Virus record (IMG/VR): IMGVR_UViG_3300042010_000244
Location: 1-24,377 of that record
DNA: 24,377 nt
Origin: a virus
Direction: 5' to 3' (one strand)
Part shown: in pieces, positions 2,240 through 24,000 of the stretch
How the letters are laid out: every line of letters starts with the position of its first letter
Numbering within the stretch: position 1 is the stretch's first letter
The notes under the pieces: generated by a model
Databases searched by the model: none
Seen by the model: the letters and a program-made list of their open reading frames with translations, nothing else
Told to the model about the DNA's origin: nothing
Program-made: the position numbers and the translations under genes

Positions 2240-4573
2240 TTATTTCGCTATGGGGTCATCGCATTTCGGCAGCCAGTCGGCGTTGCTTTCTTCCCTGAGC
2301 GCGAGATTGGTCTGTATGCCCTGATTTTTCCGGCGTTTCTCATAACTCAGTCCGTACTCTTTCAGCATGGCTGGCAACCCCTTACCGAACATAGTGAGGC
2401 TCAGGGTATTTTTGTAGCCGTGGGCTTCCATATACGCCAGATAGGCATGATACAGATACAGGCGCGGCTGACGCGGGATGATGTTGGCATTGCCAATATA
2501 CATACCATCAGGCTCCGGCATGGCTTCCAGATAGCCGCAAAAATCAAAGGCCGGATCGGCGTCGCGTTTGATGCTGAGTGCCTCGTCGGAGTTCTGCTGT
2601 GACTGGAGCAGAGCGCGGGCGGTCATCGGGTCGCTGAACTTCTGCATAAGCTGGCGAACAATCACGGCCAGCTCACGGGCGATTTTGTTCTTGAGCTGCG
2701 GGTCGCGTTCCTCCGGGGCAATCTGTTCCGGGAAATGCAGGATCACCCGGCGACGGGAAACACCGCCGCTGCGGTCGGTAAAGCGCATCGGGTTATTGTT
2801 CACGGCCAGAATCACCGCCGGAATATGGGTGGAGTACGCATCCTTGTATTTCGGGTCAACGGAGACCGCATCCCCGCCGGTGATGGCCTTGAGTCCTGCC
2901 CCGTCACCGCTCCACTTTTCCTGGTCAGGCAGACGAATCAGCGAGAAGCCAATAAGCGCGGCGCGTTCGCGCGGTGATTCCAGCGTTTCGATAGTGGCTG
3001 ATGTGGCGTTATCTTCCCCGGCAAGCATGGTTGCAATTTCGGCCAGAATACTTTTCCCGCTGCCACCCGGCCCGGTCACTTCGAGAAAGAGCTGCCAGTC
3101 ATAGCGGTTCGCCAGCACCATAAACAGCGCAGCAAGAATAACGTCGCGTTTTTCCGGTCTGCCACCGGCGGCGCGGTCAAGCCAGCGCCAGAAATCCGGT
3201 GCGTGAGTTTCCAGCTTTTCGCCCTCCACCGGTGGGGTAAAATCAACATCACAGAGTGTGCGCAGCCAGTGTGATTTGTGGTGCGGGCTGAAAGTGCCGG
3301 TGGCGGTATCGAGTACGCCGTTGCGAAAGCCAATCAGACGGCGCGCAGGGGCGTCCTGCTGCGGAATAATCAGTTTCAGGGTCTCAACCACTGAGGCAAT
3401 TTTACCCGACGAGAACGGCGCGCGCAGACGCTGGAACAACCCGGCCACATCGCGGGCAAAATCCGACGGGGGAATGATTTTCCATATCCCGGCCTCATAG
3501 CGGGACAGGAGCTGGCCGTTCGCATCCACGGCCAGCGCTTCGCCGTAGTGTTCATGCACCCGCATTGCCTTTTCACTGGTGCTCATGGCGGTAAATTCCG
3601 CCTCGCTCATGGTAGTGAAAGGACTGTCAGCCGGTGGCCGGATGGCGTCATAAATCGCTTTCCGTGTCGCCTCTTCGCCTTTCTGAACGAACGCATCATT
3701 CCAGTCACCGAACACTGGCGGCAGGGCAACAATGCCCTCACAGGCATCTGCGGCCGCAGCGGCTTTACTCTGGCCGTCACCGTTAAGGTCACGGTCGGCG
3801 GCGAGGACAATCTGACAGGCCGGATATTTCTGACGGGCAAGGCTCGCCAGAGAAAGGAGGTTCACGGAGGACAGCGCCACCATGACAGTTTCCCCGGTCA
3901 GGTGATGCACGGTGAGTGCGGTCGCATAACCCTCTGCAATCCACAGGCGTTTTCCGGCCTGTTTTTTCCCTTCGATGATATGACATGCCCCTTTGACCTG
4001 ACCGCCTTTCAGGGTGCGCTTGAGACCGTCAGCATTGATAAGCTGAAGGTTAACCAGTGTGCCGGTATCGTCATGCAGCGGGACAACCACATCACCGGCG
4101 CGGAACGTCACGCCGCCGGTTTTATGCATGACGGTGAGCGTCAGATATTCCAGAGCGGGGAAACCCTTGCGGGTGAGGTAGGCATTGCCGGTGGCCGCAA
4201 GGGTTTTCTCCATGAGCCTGACGGCCAGCGCGGCCGCCGCTTTGCGGTCAGCCACCGTTTCAGCCTCTGCGGCCACAATCACCTCCGGGGCAACCGGCGG
4301 CAGGTTGCCGGTGACAGCATTCACCTTTTGGGCGGCCTCTGATGCGGTTACGCCGAACACTTTCTCTACCAGCTTAAGCCCGTCACCCGCGCCGCACTGG
4401 TTACAGAACCACGTCCCGCGCCCCTCTTTGTCGTCAAAGCGGAAACGGTCAGAGCCGCCGCACACCGGACAGGACTGATGGCGGTTTTTAATCACCTTCA
4501 CACCCAGTGCCGGGAGAATATTCGGCCAGTGGCCGCACGCCTGTTTTACGGTTTCCGTTACATTCATTTTCAT
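2240..4573 (-). CDS. alpha: P4 alpha-type primase-helicase (origin-binding replication protein)
   Basis: This is a multifunctional replication protein of P4 satellites that binds origin iterons, unwinds DNA and primes synthesis. At 777 aa it matches the length of P4 alpha. The N-terminal zinc finger has C35-x2-C38 and C57-x2-C60. The primase region shows the EGYATA motif with E214 and a downstream D260-R-D262 pair. The helicase Walker A is GPGGSGKS with K507. The last 150 or so residues correspond to the origin-binding domain. The ATG at 4573 has GGGAGAA 8-9 bases upstream. It is the last gene of the leftward operon and ends at a strong terminator. Its likely targets, GTGAACAG iterons, lie at 1099-1178 and 6210-6314. 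All key residues are present, so replication competence is likely. Confidence 0.95.
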   Translation of the reverse strand: MKMNVTETVKQACGHWPNILPALGVKVIKNRHQSCPVCGGSDRFRFDDKEGRGTWFCNQCGAGDGLKLVEKVFGVTASEAAQKVNAVTGNLPPVAPEVIVAAEAETVADRKAAAALAVRLMEKTLAATGNAYLTRKGFPALEYLTLTVMHKTGGVTFRAGDVVVPLHDDTGTLVNLQLINADGLKRTLKGGQVKGACHIIEGKKQAGKRLWIAEGYATALTVHHLTGETVMVALSSVNLLSLASLARQKYPACQIVLAADRDLNGDGQSKAAAAADACEGIVALPPVFGDWNDAFVQKGEEATRKAIYDAIRPPADSPFTTMSEAEFTAMSTSEKAMRVHEHYGEALAVDANGQLLSRYEAGIWKIIPPSDFARDVAGLFQRLRAPFSSGKIASVVETLKLIIPQQDAPARRLIGFRNGVLDTATGTFSPHHKSHWLRTLCDVDFTPPVEGEKLETHAPDFWRWLDRAAGGRPEKRDVILAALFMVLANRYDWQLFLEVTGPGGSGKSILAEIATMLAGEDNATSATIETLESPRERAALIGFSLIRLPDQEKWSGDGAGLKAITGGDAVSVDPKYKDAYSTHIPAVILAVNNNPMRFTDRSGGVSRRRVILHFPEQIAPEERDPQLKNKIARELAVIVRQLMQKFSDPMTARALLQSQQNSDEALSIKRDADPAFDFCGYLEAMPEPDGMYIGNANIIPRQPRLYLYHAYLAYMEAHGYKNTLSLTMFGKGLPAMLKEYGLSYEKRRKNQGIQTNLALREESNADWLPKCDDPIAK

Positions 4574-6390: not shown

Positions 6391-6448
6391 TGTGCCATTT
6401 TTGCCACAACGGCAATGAATCGTATTGTTGTGTCTGGCGCGGCAGAAT
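6391..6448 (+). promoter_or_regulatory. Ogr/Delta-type late promoter for psu
   Basis: TGT (6391-6393), 12 bases, then ACA (6406-6408) matches the TGT-N12-ACA site of P2 Ogr and P4 Delta activators, extended to TTGT-N12-ACAA. Such sites are centred near -55. A -10-like CAGAAT at 6443-6448 gives a start near 6455, consistent with that spacing, and no good -35 is present, as is usual for this class. Psu would be switched on when a P2-like helper supplies Ogr. Confidence 0.65.
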
Positions 6449-6480
6449 CTCCTCAGATTGAAACGAAGAGGAGACCCGAT

Positions 6481-7233
6481 ATGACTCAGACCGCTGTTAT
6501 TCCCGACTACCTTAAACCCCCAATGGAACGGCTTGAGACGGCCAGAGAAGCACATCTGACCAATGCCCGACGCATGGACGAAACCGCGACGGCCATCAGC
6601 CAGGTGAAAGCACAAAAAAACGAACTGGAGCAGGAAAACGGAAATGATTCCGGCGCATGGCGAAACGCCTTTCGTGCCAATGGCGCGGTTATTACCGACG
6701 AGCTGAAACAACGCCATCTTGCGCGCGTGGCACGGCGGGAGCTGGCGCAGGAATGTGACAATATGAATGAGGTGCTGTCTTTCGAGCTGGACAGCCTTAA
6801 AGGAGCGTGTGACCAGACGGCCAGAGCGTATCGTCAGGCACATCACAGCGTCCTTAATCAGGCCGCTGGTCGCTATATCGTCTCGCATGAAGAAGTACAG
6901 CGCATCAGCATCCGTAACCGGCTGCATGATTTTATGCAGCAGAACGGCGCAGAGCTGGCCGCTGCACTGGCACCTGAGCTGATGGGGATTAAGAACCAGC
7001 CTGCGATGATAAAAAACCGTGCGCTTGACCGTTCGGTGGCATATCTCCGTGAAGCTCTATCAGTCTGGCTGGCAGCAGGAAATGAAATTAATTATTCTGC
7101 ACAGGATAACGACATTTTAACGGCCATCGGATACAGGCCTGACGCGCCTTCGCGGGAGGATAATCGTGAAAAATTCACCCCTGCACAGAACATGATTTAC
7201 GCCCGTCGACGCACCGAACTGGCCGCGCAGTAG
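6481..7233 (+). CDS. psu: Psu family polarity suppression protein with long N-terminal region
   Basis: P4 Psu binds Rho and blocks termination, and it also decorates the satellite capsid. Residues 126-250 closely match the C-terminal two thirds of P4 Psu as I recall it (NQAAGRYI, RDFMQQ-type helix, AALAPELMG, INYSAQD, REKFTPAQNMI). The first 125 residues are a charged, helical, probably coiled-coil region, about twice as long as in P4 Psu (190 aa total). The ATG at 6481 has GAGGAG 7-8 bases upstream; an ATG at 6415 lies at the -10 side of the predicted promoter and is unlikely. The gene is alone in its late transcript, with no sid or delta before it, and is followed by a hairpin and cos. Confidence 0.88.
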   Translation: MTQTAVIPDYLKPPMERLETAREAHLTNARRMDETATAISQVKAQKNELEQENGNDSGAWRNAFRANGAVITDELKQRHLARVARRELAQECDNMNEVLSFELDSLKGACDQTARAYRQAHHSVLNQAAGRYIVSHEEVQRISIRNRLHDFMQQNGAELAAALAPELMGIKNQPAMIKNRALDRSVAYLREALSVWLAAGNEINYSAQDNDILTAIGYRPDAPSREDNREKFTPAQNMIYARRRTELAAQ

Positions 7234-7425: not shown

Positions 7426-7687
7426 TGCGCGCTAAGTTAAAGATACTTTTAATTTTACAACTACGTTGTGATATCTTTTTAACTCGCTAATTCAATAGTG
7501 ATAAAACAATTGTTTATAGCTAATAATAATCAATTCCAGACTAACAATCGTCAAAAACTATGTTTTGTGAATGGCTATCTAAAAATACTGGCTTAATTAT
7601 TTGACGTGATCTAAAGTACTGATGAAATTATTATACTGATTTAATTTTTTAACTGCTAAAAACATTAACAAAAAATAAGGGATTCAC
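7426..7687. other. AT-rich leader of the GHKL-nuclease gene
   Basis: Base composition shifts sharply from GC-rich cos DNA to AT-rich DNA near 7435, marking the cargo junction. A perfect 12-bp palindrome, AAACAATTGTTT, lies at 7504-7515. TATACT at 7632-7637 could be a -10 element, but no -35 at normal spacing is convincing (TTGACG at 7601 is 25 bases away). I see no coding sequence. Confidence 0.45.
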
Positions 7688-9673
7688 ATGGCAGAGAAAT
7701 CATTTAATGTAGAAGTACAGATGGATTATTTAGATAAGGTTTCTAAATCTTCTGCATTACAAGCAATCGCTGAGTTGGTATGGAATGCCTTAGATGCTGA
7801 TGCTGAAAATGTATATGTTGATTTGACAGAGTCTGAGTTAGGACTCTCGCATATATTTATCAGGGATGATGGTAATGGTATTCCCTATGAGAATGCAGAA
7901 AAATTATTTAGTTCACTGGGCGGATCATGGAAAAAAGACAAGGTTTTATCAGAAAGAAAATCTCGTTTTTTACACGGAAAAGAAGGGCAGGGACGTTTTA
8001 AGGCATTCTCAATAGGTCGATATATTGAGTGGGATACTACTTATTTACTTGATGATGTATATTATGAATATAAAATAAAAGGAATAGCTGATAATAAGAA
8101 AAAGATTTCAGTTTCTGATAAGGTAGTATCAAATGAAGTTAAATCAGGAACAGTTGTTTCTATATTGGAATTGGTGAAAAACTTCACCTCTTTGACACCT
8201 CAAAAACTATCTGAGTTTCTTTCCACTACACTTGCTTTATATCTTAGTAAATACCCATCCGTAAAAGTATTTGTAAATCGAGAACAAATCGATCCAACAG
8301 CACAGATTTTATTTGATACAAGCTATAAATTAGATGATGTAGTTTATTGTGATGAATTACATTCATATGAGTTACAAGTTATTGAATGGAAGTCAGCTAA
8401 AGAAAATGAGATTTTTTTATGCGACAAAGAAGGTTTTCCCTTAATAAGTTATGAGAAGAAAATTAGAGGGACTGGTACATATTCTTATTCTGTTTATTTG
8501 AAGTCTACACATTTGACCAAACTTTCCCATGAGGGTACTTTGTCGCTCATGGATTTAGAGCCTTCTTTAAGCCCTGTATTAAATAAAGTCGAAGGTTTGA
8601 TAAAGGAACACTTCCGGAAAAGAGATCATGAAAAGTCAAGGGAGTTAATTGATAAATGGAAAAATGAAGGTGTTTATCCGTATGTTGGTAAGGCCGAAAA
8701 TATTGTTGAGGATGCTGAAAGAAAAGTATTCGATATTATGGCCATCAATGTTATAAAATACATACCACAATTTGATAATGGCGACCTTAAACTTAAGAAA
8801 TTTCAGTTTAAATTACTCAAGCATATTGTTGGGAGTTGCCCTGATGACTTGAGAACTATATTAGAGGAGGTTCTCTCGCTTCCTAAGGAAAAACAAGCTG
8901 AATTGGCTGAGATATTAAGGGATGCCTCATTGTCAGCTGTTATTAGTGTTTCCAAAATAATTACTGATAGATTGAAGTTCATATCTGGGCTTGAGAATGT
9001 ATTATTTCATCCGAATACAAGAAAAGTATTCAAAGAGAGAAGTCAGCTTCATAAAATAATGGCGGATAATACATGGTTTTTTGGTGAGTCTTTTACATTG
9101 AGTGTCAATGATAAGTCACTAACTGAAGTATTAAAAGTACATTTGGAAAAGCAAGGGATTGATATTCCAGTTGATGAGAAAGTAACAAGGATAGATGGTA
9201 GTGTAGGTATTGTTGATTTAATGCTTACTAGAAGTATAGGCAAAAATTACCCAGATGAGCGTGAGCATATTATTATCGAATTAAAGGCACCTAAAGTAAA
9301 TATAGGTCAATCAGAAATAGAACAGGTTAAATCCTATGCGTATGCAGTTGCTGAAGACGCAAGATTTAATGGTTTAAAAACAAAGTGGAACTTCTGGGTT
9401 ATATCGAATGAGCTCACAACTTATGCTCTCAGAGAATTAAAACAAAAAAACCTTCCTGAAGGTGCAATATATCAAGCTGAAGAAATGACTATTTGGATAA
9501 AAACTTGGTCCCAACTTATTCAAGAGAACAAACATAGATTGGGTTTTCTACAGAATCAGCTTAATATTTCGTATGACCGTGAAGATGGACTACAGTTCTT
9601 AAAGCAAAAGTATGCTGAGTACACTGAGGGCGTTGTATTTGAAAATGAATCACAGGATGAGTATATAGATTAA
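7688..9673 (+). CDS. GHKL ATPase fused to PD-(D/E)XK nuclease-like domain, putative antiphage protein
   Basis: This is a 661-aa cytoplasmic protein. The N-terminal GHKL (HSP90/MutL/MORC-like) ATPase has the N-box E29-LVW-N33 with D36/D38, the DxGxG box D60-D-G-N-G64, and a GxxGxG lid at 97-102. A long, mostly helical middle follows. The C-terminal domain shows GIVD510LML, then IIIE531-L-K533, and a following Q-V-K-S-Y motif, the pattern of PD-(D/E)XK nucleases and close in style to the Shedu-like DUF4263 group. ATP-driven clamping that controls DNA cutting is inferred. The ATG at 7688 has AAGGG upstream. The gene is strongly AT-rich, unlike its neighbours, and sits between psu/cos and int, the known defence hotspot of P4 satellites. 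I cannot name a characterised system it belongs to. Confidence 0.8.
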   Translation: MAEKSFNVEVQMDYLDKVSKSSALQAIAELVWNALDADAENVYVDLTESELGLSHIFIRDDGNGIPYENAEKLFSSLGGSWKKDKVLSERKSRFLHGKEGQGRFKAFSIGRYIEWDTTYLLDDVYYEYKIKGIADNKKKISVSDKVVSNEVKSGTVVSILELVKNFTSLTPQKLSEFLSTTLALYLSKYPSVKVFVNREQIDPTAQILFDTSYKLDDVVYCDELHSYELQVIEWKSAKENEIFLCDKEGFPLISYEKKIRGTGTYSYSVYLKSTHLTKLSHEGTLSLMDLEPSLSPVLNKVEGLIKEHFRKRDHEKSRELIDKWKNEGVYPYVGKAENIVEDAERKVFDIMAINVIKYIPQFDNGDLKLKKFQFKLLKHIVGSCPDDLRTILEEVLSLPKEKQAELAEILRDASLSAVISVSKIITDRLKFISGLENVLFHPNTRKVFKERSQLHKIMADNTWFFGESFTLSVNDKSLTEVLKVHLEKQGIDIPVDEKVTRIDGSVGIVDLMLTRSIGKNYPDEREHIIIELKAPKVNIGQSEIEQVKSYAYAVAEDARFNGLKTKWNFWVISNELTTYALRELKQKNLPEGAIYQAEEMTIWIKTWSQLIQENKHRLGFLQNQLNISYDREDGLQFLKQKYAEYTEGVVFENESQDEYID

Positions 9674-9686
9674 CATAATTGAAAGG

Positions 9687-9714
9687 CTCGCCAGTTTATT
9701 CTGGCGAGTTTCTT
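9687..9714. terminator. Bidirectional terminator between cargo gene and integrase
   Basis: A perfect 8-bp stem, CTCGCCAG-TTTATT-CTGGCGAG, is followed on the plus strand by TTTCTT. On the minus strand it is followed by CCTTTC. It lies 14 bases past the cargo gene stop, and its tail overlaps the integrase stop codon, so it can serve both converging genes. Confidence 0.85.
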
Positions 9715-10903
9715 AAAGACTGGATACTTTATTACCCCACCAATTCATTAATTCTATTCTTTGCGGAAGATATATAGAGCGATTATAAGCTCTTCGTACT
9801 TCATCTTTATCACTATGAGCTAGTGCTGCCTCAATAACATCAGCATTGAATCCTGCTTCATTCATGGCAGTACTGGCTATAGAACGTAAACCATGTGCAA
9901 CAAGCTTTCCACCATAACCAATTCTCTTCAGCGCAGCATTAGCAGTCTGGCTATTCATTGGCAGCTTAGGGTCATTTCTGCTAGGAAAAACATGTTCTCG
10001 ATGGGCACTGATTGGCTTCATCACTTCTAAAATTTCTAATGCTTGAGGAGACAAAGGTACGATGTGCTCTCGTTTAGCCTTCATCCGTTCGGCTGGAATC
10101 GTCCAAAGCTTCGCATCAAGATCGATCTCTTCCCACCGAGCTCCGGAAGCCTCAGAAGGACGCACAAGGGTCAGGAGCTGCCACTCAATTAGACAGCGAG
10201 TCGAAACAGATAGATTCGACATGACTAGAGAACGCATCAGCTTTGGCAATTCCTCTGGCCGCAGCGTCGGCATATTTTGCTTTTTGGGCTTCTCAAAGGC
10301 CATCCCAACTCCTGAGGCTGGGTTCGCATCAATCAGACCCGTGTTTACGGCATAAATCATTATCTCGTTAATGCGTTGCACCAGTCGACGTACAGTCTCA
10401 AGCGCCCCACGAGCTTTGATGGGCTCAAGAGCTTCAACCAGTGTCCGGGCTTTGATTTGCTGAACAGGGATCTCACCGATGGCAGGGAATACATCTTTCT
10501 CCAGTGAGCGCCAAATGTCTTTTGCGTAATCAGGGGTAACGCTTTTGCTTTTGAGCTGGAACCAGTTAGCGGCGACCGTTGAAAAAATACTGTCCAGTGC
10601 GATTTGCTGCTGTTCCTCTGCAACTTCAGCTTGAATCTGTGGGTCGATTCCATTGGCTAATAAGGCAAGGTAATCAGCTCTTAACCCTCGGGCATCAGCA
10701 AGCGATAGGGCGGGGAAGGCTCCGAGTCCCATCATTGTCCGCTGTTTTGTTGCCGGACGTTGATAACGGAAACGCCAGAGCTTTTTGCCGCTGGTTTTCA
10801 CTATCAGGAAAAGCCCATCGCCATCATGTAGCGTTAGATCCTTCTCTAGCGCTTTAGCGCGCAGAACTTCGGTGTTGGTCAGGGGGCGTGTTGTCCGTGC
10901 CAC
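9713..10903 (-). CDS. int: P4-family tyrosine integrase of the satellite
   Basis: This 396-aa tyrosine recombinase integrates the element into the 3' end of ssrA. It has an N-terminal DUF4102 arm-binding domain (about 1-90), a core-binding domain (about 100-205) and a catalytic domain with R248, a Lys near 275-277, H337-x-x-R340, H363 and nucleophile Y373; all are present. The start is GTG at 10903, with AAGGAG 8 bases upstream and MARTTRPLTN matching the second integrase. Its first codon lies 185 bases from ssrA. The GTATAC palindrome at 10923-10976 covers its promoter region, suggesting self-repression. Protein similarity to the truncated copy at 1-723 is high while many third codon positions differ, so the two are old relatives, not a recent duplication. 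Confidence 0.95.
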   Translation of the reverse strand: MARTTRPLTNTEVLRAKALEKDLTLHDGDGLFLIVKTSGKKLWRFRYQRPATKQRTMMGLGAFPALSLADARGLRADYLALLANGIDPQIQAEVAEEQQQIALDSIFSTVAANWFQLKSKSVTPDYAKDIWRSLEKDVFPAIGEIPVQQIKARTLVEALEPIKARGALETVRRLVQRINEIMIYAVNTGLIDANPASGVGMAFEKPKKQNMPTLRPEELPKLMRSLVMSNLSVSTRCLIEWQLLTLVRPSEASGARWEEIDLDAKLWTIPAERMKAKREHIVPLSPQALEILEVMKPISAHREHVFPSRNDPKLPMNSQTANAALKRIGYGGKLVAHGLRSIASTAMNEAGFNADVIEAALAHSDKDEVRRAYNRSIYLPQRIELMNWWGNKVSSL

Positions 10904-11087: not shown

Positions 11088-11110
11088 TGGTGGAGCTGGC
11101 GGGAGTTGAA
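11088..11110. other. Right attachment core within the ssrA 3' end
   Basis: This is the 3' acceptor stem and T-arm side of ssrA, ending in CCA at 11088. P4-type integrases commonly use such tRNA-like ends. The matching decayed core is at 918-939. The exact crossover point cannot be set from one sequence. Confidence 0.7.
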
Positions 11111-11450
11111 CCCGCGTCCGAAATTCCTACATCCTCGGTACTACATGCTTAGTCTGTCTTTACATTCACCTGCCAGCTGCGAACAGACACGCCACTGACA
11201 AACTAGCCTGATTAGTTTTAACGCTTCAACCCCAGGCAGGGCATCCACGCGATCTCTTTTGGGTTTGACCTCTCTTGATCCCCGTCCTAAGAGCGGAGGC
11301 TAGGGAGAGAGGGCTCTTAGCAGGTTATTAAGCTGCTAAAGCGTAGTTTTCGTCGTTTGCGACTATTTTTTTGCGGCTTTTTACGAGGCAAACCGCCCCT
11401 CGGCATGCACCTTGGGTTTCGCAAATCCCGTCGAATCCAGAATCAGCCCC
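11088..11450 (-). ncRNA. ssrA: Transfer-messenger RNA (tmRNA)
   Basis: This is 363 bases long, from 5' GGGGCTGATTCTGGATTCG to 3' AGCTCCACCA, and nearly identical to the E. coli gene as I recall it. It rescues stalled ribosomes with SmpB by adding a degradation tag. The tag frame at 11360-11328 (minus strand) encodes ANDENYALAA followed by TAA. The tRNA-like ends pair correctly (GGGGCU with AGCUCC), so integration has preserved function. The 3' end doubles as the satellite's attachment site. The gene diverges from bapA; smpB, next to ssrA in E. coli, is not in the window. Confidence 0.98.
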
Positions 11451-11890: not shown

Positions 11891-11995
11891 AAAGAGTTAC
11901 CTCATAAATCGCTCCCAAATCTTAACCGAGCTCAATTCTGCCAGATAACTTTGGCTGCCATTGGCTTATCCAAAATAAATTCGACAGGTGCGTAA
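11861..11995 (+). CDS. Possible 44-aa upstream open reading frame of bapA
   Basis: The frame begins MDETSKPLKIKELPHKSLPN and ends 31 bases before the bapA start. I do not recognise the peptide. No clear ribosome binding site precedes its ATG, which lies in the loop of the hairpin at 11843-11890. It could be a short regulatory peptide, the remnant of a larger gene or chance. The AT-rich setting makes a 45-codon frame only mildly unusual. Confidence 0.25.
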   Translation: MDETSKPLKIKELPHKSLPNLNRAQFCQITLAAIGLSKINSTGA

Positions 11996-12026
11996 TAACA
12001 GGCACTTGCTGCACGAGGAATATAAT

Positions 12027-15000
12027 ATGGCGCCGAAAAATGGCCTTCCAGGAACCGTGGATATTATAAATCAGAAAACCGGCGATGTTGTGATGGAATA
12101 TCCGCAAAATGCGGATCGCGTCGTTAATCTCTCGCAGACAAGTGTGGTGCGCGTAAATGCTTCTCCCGCCTCGGTAAATTTTTACGAGCGTGAAGGAAAT
12201 GACCTGATCGTCCATATGAAAGATGGCTCGACGGTACGCTATCAGAAGTTCTTTTTCCTGGATGAAAATGGCCTGCACAGCCAACTGGTGTTTGAGGACA
12301 ATCTCGGCGCGCATCAGGCCGTATTCCCGTTCGCGTCAGAGGCCGGGCCGCTGACTGCCGAGGCGATAGTGCCGGCAATGGCCGACGTTGCGGTCGGTTC
12401 CTTGATCGGCGCAGGTGGTATTTCAGCGCTGGCCGTGCTGGGCGGACTGGCGGCAGTGGGGGGGATTGTGGGCGTCGCCGCGGCATCCGGTGGAGGTGGC
12501 GGCGGTGGGAGTGATAATGACAATAACAATGGCGGTACCACGCCGCCGGACGGAGGCACTACGCCACCAGGTGATGGCGGTAGTCCTACGCCACCGGATG
12601 ATGGCGGCACAACCCCGCCTGATGGCGGTGGCACAACCCCGCCTGATGACGGTGGCACAACTCCGCCTGATGACGGTGGCACAACTCCGCCTGATGGTGG
12701 CGGTACCACGCCGCCAGTCGAATCAACTCTGACGGTAGATCCGCTAACGGAAGATAACCTGCTCAATCTGGAAACCGTATCGCTCAGTCAGGTTTTGAGT
12801 GGCTCTACCCAGGCCGAAAACGCCGGTTGCCTGATTACCGTTATGTGGGGCGACAGCGTCTGGACTACCACGGTCAATGATGATGGCTCCTGGGCCTTAC
12901 TCTTCCCGCCGGAAGTGCTGCAAAGCTTTTCACAGGGCGAGAGCTTACTGCGAGTGCGTCTGGTGGATAACAGCGGGACCGCTCTTGAAGCCGCCCTGCC
13001 GGTCATGGTTGATACTATCCCGCCCGCGCTGGAACCGGTCGAGTTTGTGCCCAACCGTATTTTCGACAGCTCACAGCTTAACGGCGATAAGATCCTGCGC
13101 GGCTACTCTGAGGCGGCTGATGAAGGCAGCACCGTCTTAATCACCCTTAACGGTAAAACCTACAGTGCGGTTGTCGACAGCAGCGGCAACTGGCAAACCT
13201 CGATCCCACTCGCGGATCTGCAGGCGCTTGCCGATGGTGATAGCTACAGCATCACCTACGAAATCACCGATCTGGCGGGTAACGTTACCACCAGCAGCAG
13301 CGATTTTACGGTCAACCTGACCGCACCGATCATTACCGTTAATCCACTGACCGGCGATGATGTCCTTAATAATGCGGAGATCCAGCTGGATCAAGTCCTC
13401 TCCGGCACCACGGAAAACATCGCTGCCGGTCAGACGGTCACTATTACGCTCGGCGGGCAGACCTGGTATGCGGTGGTGCAGGGGGATGGTAGCTGGAGCG
13501 TGACGCTGCCGTCGGGCGATCTGCTGGCGCTGGGTAACGGCCCTGGTACCATCACCGTCAGCGTAGTGGATAAAAATAACCAGACTATTACCAGCAACCG
13601 TCCGATTACGGTGGATACCGCGCAGAGCGGTATCGCCATCGCGATTGTCTCAACCGATGACTACCTCAACGCTGCCGAAGCGACGCAGCCGCTGGAAGTG
13701 CGCGGTGTGACCACCGTGGTTGGCCCGTCGGTATCCGTGCTGGTGGAATTTAATGGTAAAACCTACGCCGCCGTGGTGGATAACGCGGGCTACTGGAGCG
13801 CGGTGATCCCGGTCGCCGATCTGGCCGAACTGAAAGACGGTCCGCGTCAAATCACCGCGACCGTTACGCTCGGCACTCAGAGCGCGTCCGACGCACATAT
13901 TCTGAACGTGGCGATAAACCATGTGCCGCAGCCGACGCTCTCCACGCCTTTTGTCGACGGGATCCTGAGCGCCGCCGAGCGCGACGTCCCACAGGGGATC
14001 AGCGGTAACACCGGCATCAGCGGTGCCGGACAAAAAGTCTCGGTGCTGCTGGGGGGTAAAACCTACACCGCTACCGTCGACAGCGATGGTAACTGGGCGA
14101 TCACCGTACCGCCTGCCGATTTACAGACCCTGCCGCAGGGTTCGGTGTCGATGGTCGTTAACGCCTCGGATGCCGCCGGTAATAACGCAACGCTGCCGGC
14201 CAGCGCCATTGTGGATACGCTGGCACCGGATCTGGCGGTGCTGCCGATCTCCGGTGACGGGCGGCTGGGCCTTGAGGATATGAACATCGCACAGGCGCTG
14301 AGCGGTATCTCGTCGATGACTGAGGCCGGTCAGCCGATCACCGTGGTGCTGAATAACAAAACCTACACCACAACGGTAGGCAGCGACGGTAACTGGAGCA
14401 TTACGCTGCCGTCAGCCGATCTCCAGCAACTGGTGAACGGCGCGAATGTGGCGACGGTTACGCTCACTGACGCCGCCGGTAACGCGCGCGTGGTTGAGCA
14501 GACCATTAACGTCAAAACCACGCAGCCGACCGCCACCGTCACCTCTTTCGCCGGAAATAACGGGCTGGATGCGGCGGAAATCAAAACCGATCAGCTGTTA
14601 CGCGGTACCACTTCCGATGCCGAACCGGGCAGTCGTGTGACTGTTACCCTTGGCGGCAATACTTATCATTCAGTAGTCGCCAGCGACGGCAGCTGGACGG
14701 TATTGATCCCGTCCGGCACCCTTTATCAACTGACGCCGGGGGTGAATACGGCGCAGGTGAGCATCACCGATATTTACGGGCAGACGGCGAACAGTACCTA
14801 TCCGGTAACGGTCGAGAGCACCCCGACGGCGGTGGCGATCAGCATCATTTCCGGCAATGACTATATCGGCGTACAGGAAGCGGCGGGCGTGGTCACCATC
14901 AGCGGTACCAGCGCCGGGCTGCCGCTGAATACCGAAGTGCAGGTGCTGGTAAACGACACCATCTATAAAGGTTTTGTCGATGCGAACGGCAACTGGAGTA

Positions 15001-18000
15001 TTTCGCTGGCACCTGGCGCGCTGTCCGGTTCTGTGGATGGCCCGCTGACGGTGACGGCCACGGCGGTAGTCAACGGCGTGACGGTAAGCGACATCCATAC
15101 CGTTAACCTGATCCTCAATGCGCTGCCGCAGGCGAGCAACGATCCGCTGTTTGGCGACGGCGTACTGAACGGCAGCGAAATTCAGCAAAACCAGACGCTT
15201 TCTGGTGAAAGCGGTGTCTCCGGGCCGGGGCAGACGGTGAGCGTCAATCTTGGCGGTAATACCTATACCGGCACGGTCAACGAAAGCGGGCAGTGGAGCG
15301 TGACTATCCCGTCCGGCGCGCTCAATGGCTTAACCAACGCGAATTCGCCGCTGCCGGTCACGGTGACGGTCACCGATATTGCGGGCAATACCAACACCAG
15401 CGCGCCGATCAACGTCAATATCGACGTCGAGCCGCCGGTGCTGAGCTTCGATCCGTTTGCTGCTAACGACATTCTGAACCTGGCGGAAGCCGGGGCAACG
15501 CAGACGCTTTCCGGCGTCGCCAGCGGCGCAGGGGCAGGGCAGCCGGTAACGATAGTGCTCAACGGGCAGACCTATAACGCCACCACCGGCGCGAACGGCG
15601 TCTGGTCGGTGGATATTCCCTCGTCAGCATTGCAGGCGCTGCCGGACGGTCAGGCGACCTTTACCGTGACGGTGACGGATGCGGCGCAAAACAGCACCAC
15701 CGCCAGCCATAACATCAGCGTACGCATCGATCCGCAAAAACAGCCGCTGCTGACTATCGATCCGGTAGCAGGTGATAACGTCATTGACGCCGCCGAACGC
15801 GGCGAAACCATTACCCTGACCGGTAAAGTCTTTAACGTCGAAGCGGGCCAGACGGTCACTGTTACCCAGGGCGCGTCCAGCTGGACCGGCACGGTCGGCA
15901 CCGACGGCAAATGGCAGGTGACCATTCCGCAGGGCGACCTGGCAGGGCTGCTGGACGGCAACTACGCGCTGGACGTACAGGTCAGCGATGCGGCAGGTAA
16001 CAGCACCAGCGCCAGCCGTCCGTTTACCGTGGATTCCACCGTCAGCGCTATTTCCGTTTCGCCACTGACCGGCGATGACCGGGTAAGCGTCAGCGATATC
16101 AGCAATGGCCTGCTTATCAGCGGCAGTTCGGTGGGGCTGGCGGAGGGAACGCCGATCACCGTTACCCTGAACGGTAAACTTTATGAAACCGCCGTTGGCA
16201 CTGGCGGGGCGTGGAGCCTCACCGTTCCGGCAGAAGACGCCCGCGATATCAGCGATGGCAACGTCACGCTGGCGGTATCAGCGCAGGAGAGCGACGGTAC
16301 CATCGTCAACAGCAGCCATGCGTTCACTATTATCACCCATGCCCTGCCTGCGGTATCCATGAATCTGCCCTTTACCGATGGCATCATGAACGGCAATGAA
16401 GCCTCGGCGGGCGGTACCCTGAGCGGCTCGACCGGCGTCAGCGGTGCCGGTCAGCAAGTCCAGGTGCAGATCGGCTCCGGTGCGCAAACGCAGACGCTGA
16501 CCGCCACCGTCGATGCTAACGGCAACTGGTCGGTGAACGTGCCGTCAACGGTGCTGAACACCTTAGCGGACGGCACCGTGCCGGTGGTGATTACCACCAC
16601 CGATGTAGTGGGTAACCCGGCGGTGCTGGAAAGCAGCATTGTGGTAGATAAAACCCCGCCGGTGCTTACCGTGGGGGCGGTGGCAGGGGACGGTATTGTT
16701 AATGCCGCCGAAGCGGCAGGCCCGATGGTGATCACCGGCAGCGCCACCCCTTACGATCCGGCGCAGCCGCAAACCGTGGTGGTGCAGATCAACGGCCAAA
16801 CCTATAACGCGCTGATCCAGGCTAACGGCGACTGGAGCGTCACGCTGCCTGCCGGGGCGCTGAACGGTATCCCGGATGGTCCGGTCAGCATGACGGTGGT
16901 GGCCACCGACAGCGCGGGCAACACCTCAACCCAGAAACCGACCTTTATCCTCGACGCCTCGCCGGTGAATGCGCCGCAGGTGACGATGAACAGCATTTCA
17001 ACGGATAACTACGTCAACGCCAGCGAAACCGGCGCGCCGCTGGTGGTTTCCGGCTCAACGGTGAACGTCGAAGCCGGGCAGATCGTGACCGTTACGCTGA
17101 ACGGTATCGGCTATCCGACTACCGTGCAGCCCGATGGCAGCTGGAGCGTATCGATCCCGGCGAACGACCTGGCAGCCGTGCAGGACGGCGTGCAGCCGAT
17201 CCTTGTCACCGTCAGCGATGCGGCAGGCAACGTCGATGACGCCACGCAGAATGTCACCTTTATTGCGCAACCGGCCAGCCAACCGACGCTCACCATCGAC
17301 AGCGTGGCGGACGATAACGTGATCAACGATGCGGAAAGCGGCAATGCCGTCCCGGTCACCGGCTCGTCGATCGGGCTGGCGCAGGGCGCCGTGGTCACTA
17401 TCACTCTCACACCGGGCGGCGGCACCTATACCGGTACCGTGGGCGCTGACGGCACGTGGTCAGTACTGGTGCCTGCAAATGTGGTCAGCGGGCTGACGGA
17501 TCAAACCTATACCGTGACCGCAACCGCCAGCGATGTCGCCAATAACCCGGCGAGCAACACCCAGCAGGTGCGCGTCGATACCGTCGGGCCGGCCATCAAC
17601 CTGAACAGCAGTTTCCTGTCCGATGGGCTGATCAATATCAGCGAATCCGCCACCGCGCAGACCCTGAGCGGCACCACCACGCCAGGCTCCATCGTATCCC
17701 TTGCGATCAACGGCACCTTTATTGAAACCCGCGCCGATCAGCTGGGGGGCTGGAGCATTGCCATTCCGGCTGAGGAGTTGCAGGCGCTGCCGCAGGGCGA
17801 GTCCTCGCTGACCCTGACCGCCAGGGACCCGGACGGTAACCTCGCCAGCCAGCCGTTGCCGATTAACGTGGGCAACACGACGCTGCCGACCATCACGCTC
17901 AATAATTCGCTGGTGCTGAGTGATGGCATGGTGAATACGATTGAAGCCGCCGGACAGAGCGAGATCACCGGGACGTCTACCGGTCTGCCGGTAGGCGCGA

Positions 18001-21000
18001 CCATCGCGCTGTTTATCGGTACGGTACAGATCGGCACCGCCACCGTGCTCAGCGGCGGAGGCTGGACGGCGACCCTGCCGGCTGGCACCTTTGAGCAGTT
18101 TGCGGATGGCCCGTACACCATTACCGCCAGCGCTACCGACGCCTTCGGAAATCCGGCGAACGGCAATCTGGGGATCGAAGTGGTGATCGACACTCCGACT
18201 GCCACGCTGCCGTCCACGCCATTTACTGATGGCACCATTAACCAACTGGAAGCCAGTACCGGGCAGATCCTCACCGGCACCACCGGCCTTAGCGGTGGCG
18301 GTCAGACTGTCAGTATCACCCTTGACGGCGGCGATCTGACCAGCCCGATCACGGTTGACGGTGCCGTGGATAACAACGGTAACTGGACGGTGCAGCTGCC
18401 GTCTGACGTATTGCAAAGCCTGAACAACGGCGAGTACACCCTGGCGGTAACGGTCACGGATAAAGCAGGCAATACCGCCACCAGTCCGACGGTGGACTTC
18501 GACGTGCGCACCGACGCGCTGCCGACCCCGGCGCTGAATACCGCGTTCGGCGATGGCGTGTTGATTAGCAGTGAAGTGGCAGACAGCGCGCTGACCGGGA
18601 CTACTGGCCTCGATAAAGCCAGTATTCAGACTATCCAGGTGAGCATTAATAACGGCCCGCTGATCACCATTGCCAGTGGCAATATTGACGCCAACGGTCA
18701 GTGGACCTTACCGGTCAGCGCCGGAACGCTCGGCGCGCTGCCGGACGGCACGATCCCGGTGAAAATTATCGTTACCGATACGGCGGGGAACGTGGTGTCT
18801 GGCGAGGGAAATTTCCAGGCCGTCATTAATAATGTGCCGGACTTTACGTTAGGAACGCTGTTTACCGATGGTGTGCTGAATAACCCGGAAGCGACTGCAG
18901 GTCAGGTGCTGCGCGGAAGTTCCGGTGCCATTGGTGCCGGACAGACGGTCACCGTCACCCTGAACGGCGTGCCATACAATACCGGCGCGACGGTGGATGC
19001 CAACGGCCAGTGGAGCGTGACGCTACCGCCGTCGGCGTTAACCGGCTTAACCAGCGGCCAGACGCAGACCGTGGTCGTCACCGTCACCGATGCCTACGGC
19101 AACAGCGACTCTGCCACGCAGACCTTTGTGCCGCAGCTGGCGCTGCCGACGCCGAGCGTGACGGATTTGTTTGGCGGCGACAACACCCTGAATATCAGCG
19201 AGGCGGCAGGGCCGCTGACCCTGACCGGTAGTACCGGCCTCGGCGGTGGCGGTCAGTTTGTCACCGTCACCATTGATGTTGACGGCGTGACCTATATCGC
19301 GGATGTCGATACTAACGGTCAGTGGTCCGTCTCCCTGCCTGCCGGGACGCTACAGGGGCTGGATCCGAACGATCCTCACGCCATTATTGTGCGCGCAGAA
19401 GATCAGTACGGTAACGTGCAGACTGCCGATGTGCCTTTCGATGTGGCCTTTACCGCACCGACCGTCACGATCGAGACGCCGGTGTTTGGCGATGGTTATC
19501 TGAATATCAGCGAATCCGGCACGCCGACGACGCTCTCCGGCACCTTTGACTCGCGCGATCCGGCGGCCACGACGGTGCAGGTGACTATCGGCGGCAAAGT
19601 CTTTACCGCCACCGTTGATCCACAAAATAACACCTGGACGCTGGCGCTGGACAGCAACAGCTGGACCGGCGTCGCGCGCGGTGAGCAGAGCGTGGCGGTC
19701 ACCGTGACCGACAATGCGCTTAACACCGGCAGCACCAGCACGCCGGTGGTGATAGCCCTTAACCAGCCGACCATTTCGGTGAACGCGCCGTTTGGCAACA
19801 GCGATCTCGACTGGACGGAAAGCCAGCAGCTGCAAACCCTTACCGGTACCACCAGCAACGTGGAGGTGGGACGTACCATTACGGTCACCCTCGCAGGCCA
19901 GACCTTTACCACCACGGTACAGCCGGGCAATACCTGGGCGCTGCAATTAACGCCATTGCAAATGGCAACGCTGGCTAACGGCAGCACCACGCTGGTGGCG
20001 ACGGTGAGCGATACTGCCGGTAATCCGGCCAGCAGCGGGCCGGTAAATGTCACCATCGATACCGTACCGCCAGCCTTCAGCGTGACGGTTAACCCGGTGG
20101 CAGGCGATAACATCATTAACGCCAGTGAGTTCAACGCCGCGCCGACGATTGCGGTCAGTGGCCAGAGCAACGGTTATCCGGCGGGCACCGTGCTGAACAT
20201 CACGGTGAACGGCGCGCCTGTCGGTACCGCGACGGTGGACGGCAACGGCGCCTGGACAACCACGCTGCCGACCAGCGCCTTCCCGGATCAGGGGAGTTAC
20301 ACTCTCGAAGCCACCAGCCAGACCGCGCCGAATACCGCCTCGTCGGTAGTGGTGCAGGTAGATACTGTCCCGCCGACGGTGACCCTTAATCCGGTCTCCG
20401 GTGATGACGTGATTAACGCCGCGGAAAGCGGTTCGTCGCTGACCCTGAGCGGCACCGCCAGCCTGTCCGAAGCCGGACGCTCGGTGTCAGTCACCATGAA
20501 CAACAAAACCTACTATGCGGTGGTCAATGCCGACGGCAGCTGGTCTGCGGTCGTACCGCAGGCGGATGTCGCCGCGCTGCCGCCGGGCAGTAATCCGGTG
20601 GTCGCCCAACTGAGCGATGCGGCGGGGAACGAGGCGCTGGACGGCAGGAGCATCAGTGTCGATAGTGATGGCCCGCTGCTGGAGGTCAACGCCCTCAGCC
20701 TGCCGCCGGTACTTAATACGGTGGCGGCGGGTACTGGCCTGCTGGTGGAAGGGCGCGGCGAACCGGGTAACACCGTCACGGTCACCCTCGGGCCGCTCAG
20801 CTGGAGCAGTACGGTTGATAGCAACGGTAACTGGAGCTACACCTTCCCGGAACTGGATCTGCGTACGCTTAGCGACGGCGCACAGGTGATCAACATCACC
20901 TCTACCGATGCGGCGGGGAATACCTCCAGTAACAATGTCGGGCTGAACGTCGCCCTGAACCAGGGACTGGGTGTACTGGTGAACGATGTGTTCGGCACCG

Positions 21001-24000
21001 ATGGCGTGCTGAACGTCGCGGAATCGCTGGTCACGCAACTGGTGACCGGGCAGGTCAGCGGCGACTATCGCGGCGCAACGGTGAAAGTGACCATTGCCGG
21101 GGTGAACACTGCTATTCCGACGACGGTGGTCGGCGCTGATGGCAAATTCAGCATCGAGTTACCGCCAGACCTGTGGGTCGGGCTGACGCAGCAAACCCTG
21201 CAATTACAGGTGGACGTGACCGACATTTACGGCAACTCCACTAACCAACTGATCAATGTCGGCACGGCGCTGACCGATCTGCCGGTGATCAATAACATTA
21301 CGGTGGCGGCAGATAACGTTATCAACCTTGTCGACAGCACCGCCAGCCAGGTGGTATCGCTGGGGCTGGGCAACGCAGCGAACGTCGCGGGCGTGGTGGT
21401 CACCATCGCCGGACGGACCATTCAGGGGACTCAGGATGCGCTGGGCAACTGGATCGCCACCCTGCCGCCGTCGTTGCTCGGCGCGCTGCCGGATGGCACC
21501 GTCGGCCTTGCGGTCAGCGTGACGGATAAATTCGGTAACGTCGTCAACGACAGCGCTAACATCACCGTCGCCGTGAAAACCCAGCCTGCTATTGTGCTCG
21601 ACCCTCTGTTTGGCGATGGCGTGCTGAGTATTCCGGAGCTGCTGAACGGCGTGATCAGCGGCACCGCGACCGGGCTGAATGGCCGAACTCTGAACATTAA
21701 GGTCGGTGACACCACCGCTTTCACCACCAATGTGGATGGCAACGGGAAATGGTCGATTGCGCTGCCGGACGCGGTGAAATCCGTGCTTCAGGGGCTGGGC
21801 ACCGGCAACGTGGCGGTGAGCGTCGAGGCGACCGATCAGTACGGTAATAATGCCGCGGTGGGCACAAACGTCGCACTTAATCTGCTGCCGCCAGTGCTGA
21901 ACGCCGTCACGCTGTTTGGCGACGGGCTGCTGAACGCCGCCGATGCGCTGCTGACGCAGACCATTACCGGCAGCGTCGGGCAGGCTCCGGCAGGCTCCAC
22001 CGTGAGCGTGCAGCTGGGCAGTAAAGTTTTTGCCGGCGTGGTGGCGGGTAACGGCACCTTCAGCATTAACGTCAGCCCGACGGATCTCGCCACCCTGGCA
22101 GACGGTACGCTGACGCCAGTCGTCACCATTCAGACGCCGGACGGCAACACCACCACCAGCAACGGTCCGGCGATCAAAGTCGGGCTGACCAATCTGCCGA
22201 CGGTGGGGGTTAACCTCGGGACGCTGTTTGGTGGCGATGGCTATCTGAGCCGTGCGGAAGCGGATGTGGCGCAGACGATCAGCGGCGTCACCAGCCTTGC
22301 CAGCGGTACCGTCACCGTGCGCGTCGGCAGCGCCACGCTGACCGGCACCATCAACAACGGCACCTGGTCGGTGAGCGTTCCGTCTGCGGTCCTGAAAGGA
22401 TTAGCCGATGGTAATGTCACCGTCAGCGCCAGCGTGCGTGATGACGTAGGCAACCAGGGCACCGGCTCTCAGCTGGTGAACGCCATCGTTAATGCACTAC
22501 CGACTGTCAGCCTGAATACGCCGTTTGGCGACGGCAACCTGAGCCTGTCGGATCTGCTGGGCGCGCAGGTGCTTAACGGCACCACCACTAATCTGGCAGC
22601 AGGCACTGCCCTGACCGTTACCCTCGGCGGCCTGACCTTTAACACCACCGTCGGCAGCGACGGCAGCTGGCGCTTACCGTTGCCGACCGCCACCCTGCAA
22701 GGGCTGACTGACGGTACGCTGTCGGTCGGGGTGACGGCGCGCGACGTGGCGGGTAACGTCGCCAGCGACAGCAAAAATCTGCTGGTGGCGATCCAGCAGG
22801 CGCCGACGCTGGTCATCAATTCGCTGTTTGGCGATGGTGGACTGAGCGCCGCCGATATTCTCAGCGCCCAGGTGATCACCGGTTCGTCTACCAACGCGGC
22901 AGGCTCGCTGGTGAATGTGACGCTGGGCGGCAAGGTCTATCAGGCGCTGGTCGGGGCCGACGGCAACTGGTCGGTCTCGGTGCCGAAAACCGATCTCAGC
23001 GCGCTGCTCGACGGTACGCTGACGGTGAACGCTTCGGTGACAAACCCGGCAGGCAACGTGGCGGGCACCAGTGGATTGCTGAACGTCATTACCCACAGTT
23101 TGCCGACCATTTCGCTTACCTCGCTGTTCGGTAACGACGGCTTCCTCAACGTCGCGGAGTCGAACGGTACGCAGACGATTTCCGGGCGCATCAACGGGGG
23201 GATCACCGACGGCTCCCGCGTGGTGGTGTCGCTGGGCGGCACCAGTTATAACGCCACGGTGAATGCCGACGGCAGCTGGTCGTTGCCGGTCAACAGCACC
23301 ATCCTGAAAGGGCTGACCGGTGGGGCGCTGAAAGTAGGCGTCTCGGTTATCGACAAAGTGGGTAACACCAACAGCACCAGCGCGGATGTGACGGTAAAAC
23401 TCACCACGCCGGAACTGTCGTGGAACCCGCTGGCTACCCTCAACCCGCTGAACCTGTTAACCAAAGGGCTGACGCTGAGCGGCGGATCGCGCAACCTGGC
23501 GCCGAACTCGGTGGTGCATCTGTCACTGCTGAACGGTACGGTCAGCACCACCGCCGTCACTGACGCCAGCGGTAACTGGTCAACGACGCTCAACCTTGGG
23601 CTGAACATCCTTAGTCTGCTGTCGCTGACCAGCGTGGTTAACCTGTATGCCACTGACGAAGCGGGTAACACCGGCTATCTGAACGTTGGCCTTGGCGGGA
23701 ACATCATCTCCACCACGCCGCCTGCCACCCTGATGGCGATGGCGGTGGATGAATCCAGCTTTGTGCTGCATTCCGACAGCATCAACACCGTAGAGGAAAA
23801 CAGCAGCGCACCGGCCAGCACGCTGACTGCGCGCACGGCTACCGCCGCCACCGGCGAAACGGAGAGCAACACCCAGACCCCGGAGGAGAGCGCCTACACC
23901 ATTGGCGGTGTCAGCATCACGCTGGCGGATGGTACCGAAGCCAGCGGCGACAGCGTACAGGGCAGCGCAGGCAACGACACCATCCACCTCGCCACGCTGG

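What the first reader, a model, noticed from the sequence alone, without database searches (positions are those of the whole stretch)
7688..9673. Single-gene GHKL ATPase plus PD-(D/E)XK nuclease in the P4 defence hotspot
Seen: N-box E29/N33, D60-x-G62-x-G64 and a G97-x2-G100-x-G102 lid at the N-terminus; D510 and E531-x-K533 at the C-terminus; strong AT shift; location between psu/cos and int. Known: this position in P4 satellites is a hotspot for antiviral systems, and GHKL ATPases related to MutL/MORC occur in restriction-like contexts. Inference: a one-protein, ATP-gated nuclease defence. I cannot match it to a named system, although the C-terminal domain resembles Shedu-like nucleases.
Basis: partly seen in the sequence, partly recalled or inferred. 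Interest (0 to 1): 0.8.

Follow-up and report, generated by a model that had tools for sequence, protein, structure and literature searches.

The report
Solo ATP-gated nuclease on P4 satellite
A small parasite of bacteriophages carries, in the slot where such elements keep antiviral genes, one gene that fuses an ATP-driven clamp to a DNA-cutting domain; it is very probably a single-protein phage-defence nuclease of a kind predicted in 2008 and shown to work for a cousin in Vibrio cholerae in 2025.

Summary
Window 7688-9673 (+) encodes one intact 661-residue protein with a GHKL ATPase plus S5-type transducer at the N-terminus and a PD-(D/E)XK nuclease at the C-terminus. AlphaFold models are confident (pLDDT 88 whole, 92 nuclease) and match Hsp90/MORC/MutL/TopoVI-B at the front and NucS/EndoMS, Shedu and FokI-type nucleases at the back. 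By profile-profile comparison the nuclease is a remote relative of the Shedu (DUF4263/SduA_C) domain. The gene sits alone between psu and int of a P4-like satellite at ssrA. Other satellites carry different cargo in the same slot, and a second P4 satellite carries a 22%-identical protein of the same design there. Homologues are scattered over many phyla, plasmids and prophages with no fixed partner. dN/dS (about 0.06-0.08) shows purifying selection. This fits the standalone paraMORC3 proteins predicted by Iyer et al. (2008) and the design of VcSduA, whose anti-phage activity needs both its ATPase and nuclease residues (2025). Defence and ATP gating are inferred here, not tested. Verdict: real, probably a single-gene defence nuclease, new member of a known kind.

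The parts
7688..9673 (+). Single gene: 661-aa GHKL ATPase + PD-(D/E)XK nuclease (standalone paraMORC3-type)
7688..8287 (+). GHKL (Bergerat) ATPase domain, about residues 1-200; E29/N33/D36, D60-x-G62-x-G64, H96-G97-x2-G100-x-G102-R103
   Evidence: HATPase_c_3 25-139 E=5.9e-15; VIA-align Z 17-19 to TRAP1/MORC/Hsp90 over residues 9-323; invariant residues
8306..8587 (+). S5-type transducer, about residues 207-300
   Evidence: same structural matches to MORC2/MORC3/Hsp90 cover it; secondary structure
8570..9004 (+). helical linker or arm, about residues 295-439
   Evidence: AlphaFold model; lowest-confidence part inside the protein, pLDDT 60-66 at residues 381-420
9005..9637 (+). PD-(D/E)XK nuclease domain, residues 440-650; E467, D510, E531-x-K533, Q546-x3-Y550
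   Evidence: domain model pLDDT 91.7, pTM 0.89; VIA-align to NucS/EndoMS Z 9.4, B. cereus Shedu 7.9, E. coli SduA 7.7, FokI 7.8; hhalign vs SduA_C 95%
7674..7682 (+). probable ribosome-binding site just before the ATG (approximate)
   Evidence: sequence, aataagggattcacATG
6415..7233 (+). Sid-Psu fusion ORF marking one edge of the cargo slot
9713..10903 (-). P4-type tyrosine integrase marking the other edge of the slot
   Evidence: Phage_integrase E=1.1e-31; NF007246 586 bits
11088..11450 (-). ssrA (tmRNA), the integration target
   Evidence: ARAGORN

Best explanation
The gene is satellite-borne cargo encoding a standalone paraMORC3-type, single-protein DNA nuclease that defends the host cell (and so the satellite) against other phages. 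Proposed mechanism: two subunits dimerise through the N-terminal GHKL domains when ATP binds; the S5 transducers and helical arms close around DNA as in MutL, TopoVI-B and MORC2; closure brings together or unlocks the two C-terminal PD-(D/E)XK domains, which cut the trapped DNA using E467, D510, E531 and K533 with metal ions. With no modification enzyme beside it, it should tell phage DNA from host DNA by a physical feature (ends, topology, replication intermediates) or by a phage-made trigger, not by a cognate methyl mark. Shown here: domain make-up, conserved catalytic residues, fold, purifying selection, location and solo status. Inferred: dimerisation, ATP gating, DNA as substrate, phage protection, the recognised feature.
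For: Both catalytic centres invariant over 126 homologues. Confident models with GHKL+S5 fold and PD-(D/E)XK fold. Nuclease in register with Shedu SduA_C by hhalign, 95% and E=3.7e-8, against 14% for HSDR_N_2 and about 0-1% for the protein's own other domains. P4 psu-int slot, a published antiviral hotspot (PMC9122126); related ssrA satellites in E. coli carry other cargo in it, for example a restriction endonuclease or HAD + metallophosphoesterase. A 22%-identical relative occupies the same slot in another P4-like satellite, L135. Patchy spread across phyla, plasmids, Mu-like and other prophages. No fixed partner: R-M-like neighbours at only 14 of 135 loci. dN/dS 0.055-0.079 in the comparisons with enough differences. 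Same design as VcSduA, where E27A or K557A abolishes defence (PMC12137116).
Against: No functional data for this protein or, as far as text search showed, for its subfamily. Pfam SduA_C itself does not reach E<1 on this protein. The best single structural match of the nuclease is NucS/EndoMS, a repair enzyme, not Shedu. Only seven of the systems tested from the slot protected against any of eight phages, so being in the slot does not guarantee activity in a given assay.
Confidence: 0.72

Rival explanations
1. Restriction enzyme in the narrow sense: a GHKL-type II (BbrUII/HgiDII-like), type IV or orphan endonuclease that recognises a sequence or a modified base, with any protecting methylase encoded elsewhere.
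For: The N-terminus matches NF050001 BbrUII/HgiDII (E=3.1e-18) and PADLOC REase_II (1.4e-7); a minority of homologues lie beside dcm, type ISP or type I R-M genes; Iyer et al. placed many paraMORCs in R-M operons.
Against: 65.7 bits against a cut-off of 550, best stretch residues 23-203 only; R-M-like neighbours at only 14 of 135 loci; the P4 slot holds no methylase. A solo sequence-specific cutter would attack its own host unless gated or modification-dependent.
Confidence: 0.15
2. DNA-repair-like enzyme: a MutL-like clamp fused to a NucS/EndoMS-like nuclease that processes mismatches or branched DNA for the satellite or host.
For: EndoMS/NucS is the top structural match of the nuclease (Z 9.4); the GHKL domain hits MutL by profile; Iyer et al. 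raised repair for some members outside R-M contexts.
Against: Found in 11 of 5426 E. coli genomes, with a near-identical satellite integrase in 11 genomes; sporadic mobile distribution; located in a cargo slot that other satellites fill with defence genes. Sequence profiles favour Shedu over NucS: NucS_C appears in 1 of 11 homologues at E=0.26.
Confidence: 0.07
3. Satellite weapon against its helper or rival elements (P2-like phages, other satellites, plasmids), not a general anti-phage system.
For: Encoded next to cos on a satellite; P4 hotspot systems take part in inter-phage competition (PMC9122126).
Against: The same family lives on plasmids, prophages and chromosomes far from P2/P4 biology. 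This overlaps with defence more than it opposes it.
Confidence: 0.06

Closest known systems
Standalone paraMORC3 (Iyer, Abhiman & Aravind 2008, PMC2292703)
   Same: N-terminal GHKL with intact ATP motifs, S5 domain, C-terminal RE-fold nuclease with E-D-ExK, sporadic and laterally mobile, a subset standing alone without conserved neighbours
   Different: That paper proposed function from context only; its member list was not compared sequence by sequence here
VcSduA, 'Shedu type I-D', Vibrio cholerae WASA VSP-II (PMC12137116)
   Same: Single gene; GHKL ATPase plus PD-(D/E)XK nuclease of DUF4263 type; residues E27/K557 correspond in role to E29/K533
   Different: E-to-K spacing 530 against 504 here and 500-519 in the family, so probably a different subfamily; VcSduA sequence not available for direct comparison
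Shedu (SduA_C / DUF4263), B. cereus and E. coli SduA
   Same: Nuclease fold (Z 7.9 and 7.7); the W-x-F-G, D and ExK motifs in register by hhalign
   Different: Those have other N-terminal sensor domains and no GHKL ATPase; the Pfam SduA_C model does not detect this protein
BbrUII/HgiDII-type GHKL restriction enzymes (NF050001; PADLOC REase_II)
   Same: GHKL module at the N-terminus
   Different: Best stretch limited to residues 23-203, far below cut-off; no methylase partner
MutL / EndoMS-NucS / MORC2
   Same: Fold of the ATPase half (MutL, MORC) and of the nuclease half (EndoMS)
   Different: No full-length match; repair and chromatin roles do not fit the mobile, accessory distribution

Membership tests
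paraMORC3 (standalone) | N-terminal GHKL domain with intact ATP motifs | tested here: met
   HATPase_c_3 5.9e-15; motif residues 99-100% conserved
paraMORC3 (standalone) | S5 domain after the GHKL domain | tested here: met
   VIA-align to MORC2/MORC3 (Z about 18) and TRAP1/Hsp90 (Z about 19) over residues 9-323
paraMORC3 (standalone) | C-terminal RE-fold nuclease with E-D-ExK | tested here: met
   E467 (90%, mostly D otherwise), D510, E531-x-K533; PD-(D/E)XK fold matches
paraMORC3 (standalone) | Standalone, laterally mobile, no conserved neighbours | tested here: met
   largest shared neighbour cluster in 9 of 135 loci, R-M-like neighbours in 14 of 135; scattered tree
paraMORC3 (standalone) | Sequence identity to the members listed in 2008 | not tested
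   member sequences were not retrieved
Shedu type I (VcSduA, I-D) | DUF4263/SduA_C nuclease domain | tested here: inconclusive
   Pfam and PADLOC models do not reach threshold on this protein; profile-profile 95% to SduA_C; structural Z 7.7-7.9, tied with FokI
Shedu type I (VcSduA, I-D) | GHKL N-terminal domain (I-D) | tested here: met
Shedu type I (VcSduA, I-D) | Homology to VcSduA itself | not testable with these tools
   VcSduA sequence not held; E-K spacing 530 against 504 suggests another subfamily
Shedu type I (VcSduA, I-D) | Phage protection abolished by ATPase or nuclease mutation | not testable with these tools
   needs plaque assays
BbrUII/HgiDII restriction enzymes | Match to NF050001 above the curated cut-off | tested here: not met
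   65.7 bits against 550; best stretch residues 23-203
MutL (mismatch repair) | MutL match above the curated cut-off | tested here: not met
   TIGR00585 32.8 bits against 180; residues 24-75 only
P4 psu-int defence-hotspot cargo | Lies between psu and int of a P4-like satellite, in a slot that holds other cargo in related satellites | tested here: met

The most novel reading that the evidence does not exclude
A subfamily of single-protein ATP-clamp nucleases, distinct from VcSduA and without any modification partner, that recognises invading DNA by its physical state (ends, topology or replication intermediates) by closing a MORC/MutL-like gate around it before cutting: a minimal one-gene self/non-self discriminator used by satellites, prophages and plasmids.
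Probability: 0.3. Interest if true: 0.62.

Novelty: new member of a known kind. Interest (0 to 1): 0.38.

Why it matters
If it works as proposed, it moves the 2008 prediction about standalone paraMORC3 proteins from context to a compact, E. coli-borne test case: one gene and ready-made catalytic mutants. It also links the prokaryotic relatives of eukaryotic MORC ATPases to Shedu-type nucleases, and adds a further single-gene system to the P4 hotspot, where the question of how a solo nuclease spares host DNA is open.

Tried and rejected
A scan of viral contigs with the single protein found no relative; the alignment scan did. phmmer of the protein against PDB gave only weak MutL-type and chance hits, and a profile of the nuclease domain found no PDB relative by sequence. 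Attempts to find VcSduA: its sequence is not held, and the Shedu reclassification paper is not held. A search of Vibrionaceae loci for a protein with E27/N31/K557 spacing found none; L211 (679 aa, E-K spacing 524 by hand count) is the nearest proxy but matches GHKL REase_II profiles. HSDR_N_2 as the nuclease's family: Pfam gives weak hits in all 11 first homologues (best 8e-5), but profile-profile comparison prefers SduA_C (the HSDR_N_2 set was small, 12 sequences, Neff 2.5). Promoter and terminator scans are at chance level. The DefensePredictor paper and the Vassallo screen mention no GHKL nuclease in their main text. The supplementary table of Rousset et al. that lists all P4 cargo could not be read, so I cannot say whether this gene is already listed there.

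Full report
WHAT IS THERE. The window is a P4-like satellite integrated at ssrA. In order it holds the alpha primase-helicase (2240-4573, minus), a DUF5375 gene, an Ash/Icd-like gene, an AlpA-type regulator, a Sid-Psu ORF (6415-7233, plus), the gene in question (7688-9673, plus), a P4-type integrase (9713-10903, minus) and tmRNA (11088-11450, minus). The gene is a single open frame of 661 codons with an ATG start and low GC, 0.30-0.36 against 0.50-0.56 over psu.

DOMAINS AND CONSERVATION. Pfam finds HATPase_c_3 at residues 25-139 (5.9e-15) and a sub-threshold HSDR_N_2 hit at 495-554. PHROG 6203, of unknown function, covers the whole protein (5.4e-74). In a set of 126 full-length family sequences (down to about 22% identity) N33, D36, D60, G62, H96, G97, G100, G102, D510, E531, K533 and Y550 are invariant, E29, G64 and Q546 are at 99%, and E467 is E in 90% and D in most of the rest. 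The scans used patterns that include N33/D36 and E531/K533, so conservation there is partly imposed; E29, D60, D510, Q546 and Y550 were not in the genome contigs patterns. Between the window copy and the Salmonella and Raoultella copies (41 and 418 nucleotide differences) dN/dS is 0.079 and 0.057, so the protein is kept functional.

STRUCTURE. AlphaFold2 on an 87-sequence alignment gives mean pLDDT 88.0 (pTM 0.58, so the relative domain placement is uncertain). Residues 9-323 match TRAP1/Hsp90 (Z about 19) and MORC2/MORC3 (Z about 18), which covers GHKL and S5. The nuclease domain folded alone (pLDDT 91.7, pTM 0.89) has weak Foldseek E-values (best 0.02), but the second-look aligner returns mostly PD-(D/E)XK nucleases: EndoMS/NucS Z 9.4, AF1548 8.8, BspD6I 8.1, B. 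cereus Shedu 7.9, FokI 7.8, E. coli SduA 7.7. Z values of 7-9 are modest and rows under 1 apart are tied; the fold call rests on the consistency of the list plus the motif positions (D510 in one strand, E531/K533 at the end of the next, Q546/Y550 in the following helix).

WHICH NUCLEASE FAMILY. Pfam SduA_C was not found on this protein, but hhalign of the family's residues 440-650 against SduA_C domains collected from Vibrionaceae and Enterobacteriaceae gives 95% probability and E=3.7e-8 in register over the W-x-F-G, D and ExK motifs; HSDR_N_2 gives 14%, and the protein's own middle and N-terminal regions give 1% and 0.1%. A relative with GHKL plus a borderline SduA_C hit exists (L169, 25.3 bits). 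So the nuclease is best called a remote Shedu-type PD-(D/E)XK domain.

CONTEXT. The gene is in 11 of 5426 complete E. coli genomes at 99.8% identity, all chromosomal; 11 genomes also carry an integrase at least 99% identical, and where inspected (L002, and NZ_CP054227 by coordinates) gene and integrase are adjacent. Other ssrA satellites with 86-87% identical integrases carry a restriction endonuclease (L198) or HAD hydrolase plus metallophosphoesterase (L199) in the same slot. Independently, IMG/VR contig L135 is a P4-like satellite with integrase, primase and Psu, and in the slot a 22%-identical GHKL protein with the same catalytic pattern plus a CAP12/PCTIR TIR gene; in the tree it lies far from the window gene. 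The slot is a published reservoir of antiviral systems (PMC9122126). At least 482 relatives were found in a one-genome-per-species collection and 41 loci in viral contigs, and the family occurs in Mu-like Pasteurella prophages; the tree mixes phyla. No partner recurs: the commonest neighbour cluster, a phage antirepressor, is in 9 of 135 loci, and R-M-like genes are in 14 of 135 by phmmer with a few seeds, which is a lower bound.

COMPARISON WITH WHAT IS KNOWN. Iyer et al. 2008 described paraMORC3 as GHKL + S5 + C-terminal RE-fold nuclease with E-D-ExK, and noted a subset, mainly in proteobacteria and bacteroidetes, as standalone genes without conserved neighbours. This protein meets each of those features. 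In 2025 VcSduA, with the same architecture and called Shedu type I-D, was shown to protect against T1-like phages and vibriophage X29, with E27A and K557A abolishing activity and infected cultures surviving. Its N-box Glu to catalytic Lys spacing (530) falls outside this family's 500-519, so I treat VcSduA as an analogue and probable cousin, not as the same subfamily. BbrUII/HgiDII and MutL membership fail their curated cut-offs.

MECHANISM. Most likely: an ATP-bound dimer closes a GHKL gate around DNA, transmits the state through S5 and the helical arms, and licenses the paired PD-(D/E)XK domains to cut. Each element is established knowledge for MutL, TopoVI-B, MORC2 or Shedu; that this protein does it is inference. 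Because no methylase is present, self/non-self discrimination should rest on a physical DNA feature or a phage trigger. Rivals (modification-dependent or orphan restriction, repair-like, satellite-specific weapon) are listed with tests.

VERDICT. Real, conserved, well-annotatable, very likely a single-gene defence nuclease; a new member of a known kind. Interest is moderate because the architecture and a working relative are already published; what is new is this subfamily's placement in the P4 slot, with a distant relative there independently.

Noticed in passing
6415-7233: The 'psu' ORF is an in-frame fusion of the front of Sid (about 147 aa) with the back of Psu, caused by a deletion of about 800 bp (8-bp overlap at 6854-6861) relative to E. 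coli L002; it removes the Sid C-terminus, the delta/ogr gene and the Psu N-terminus, so this satellite is probably impaired in capsid sizing and late-gene control.
   Followed up: partly
1-888: Truncated second P4-type integrase at the left window edge (NF007246), with an 18-bp repeat ACAGACACAAAAAAGCCC at 831 and 11012: a tandem element at the same site.
   Followed up: partly
1239-2039: 266-aa low-GC (about 0.34) ORF on the minus strand without any match in Pfam or PADLOC and only chance-level NCBIfam and PHROG hits; similar DNA (about 92%) in several E. coli genomes annotated 'hypothetical protein'. Possible unrecognised cargo gene.
   Followed up: no
11988-24377: Giant ORF running to the window's right edge, 4129 codons as listed, next to ssrA; its first part has no megablast match in 5426 E. 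coli genomes and no DNA similarity to the Salmonella bapA locus, so the host is probably not E. coli.
   Followed up: partly
L135:1-5064: Second P4-like satellite with a distant GHKL+nuclease gene and a CAP12/PCTIR TIR-domain gene (305 aa) sharing the int-psu slot.
   Followed up: partly
L167:247-1860 (-): GHKL ATPase fused to a Hypoth_Ymh (PF09509) C-terminal domain in an enterobacterial genome, a different effector on the same ATPase module.
   Followed up: no
L160-L165, L207-L210: Further standalone GHKL+nuclease subfamilies (25-28% identical in the Enterobacteriaceae cases) in Enterobacteriaceae and Vibrionaceae; the two enterobacterial examples scanned are unrecognised or barely recognised by PADLOC.
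   Followed up: partly
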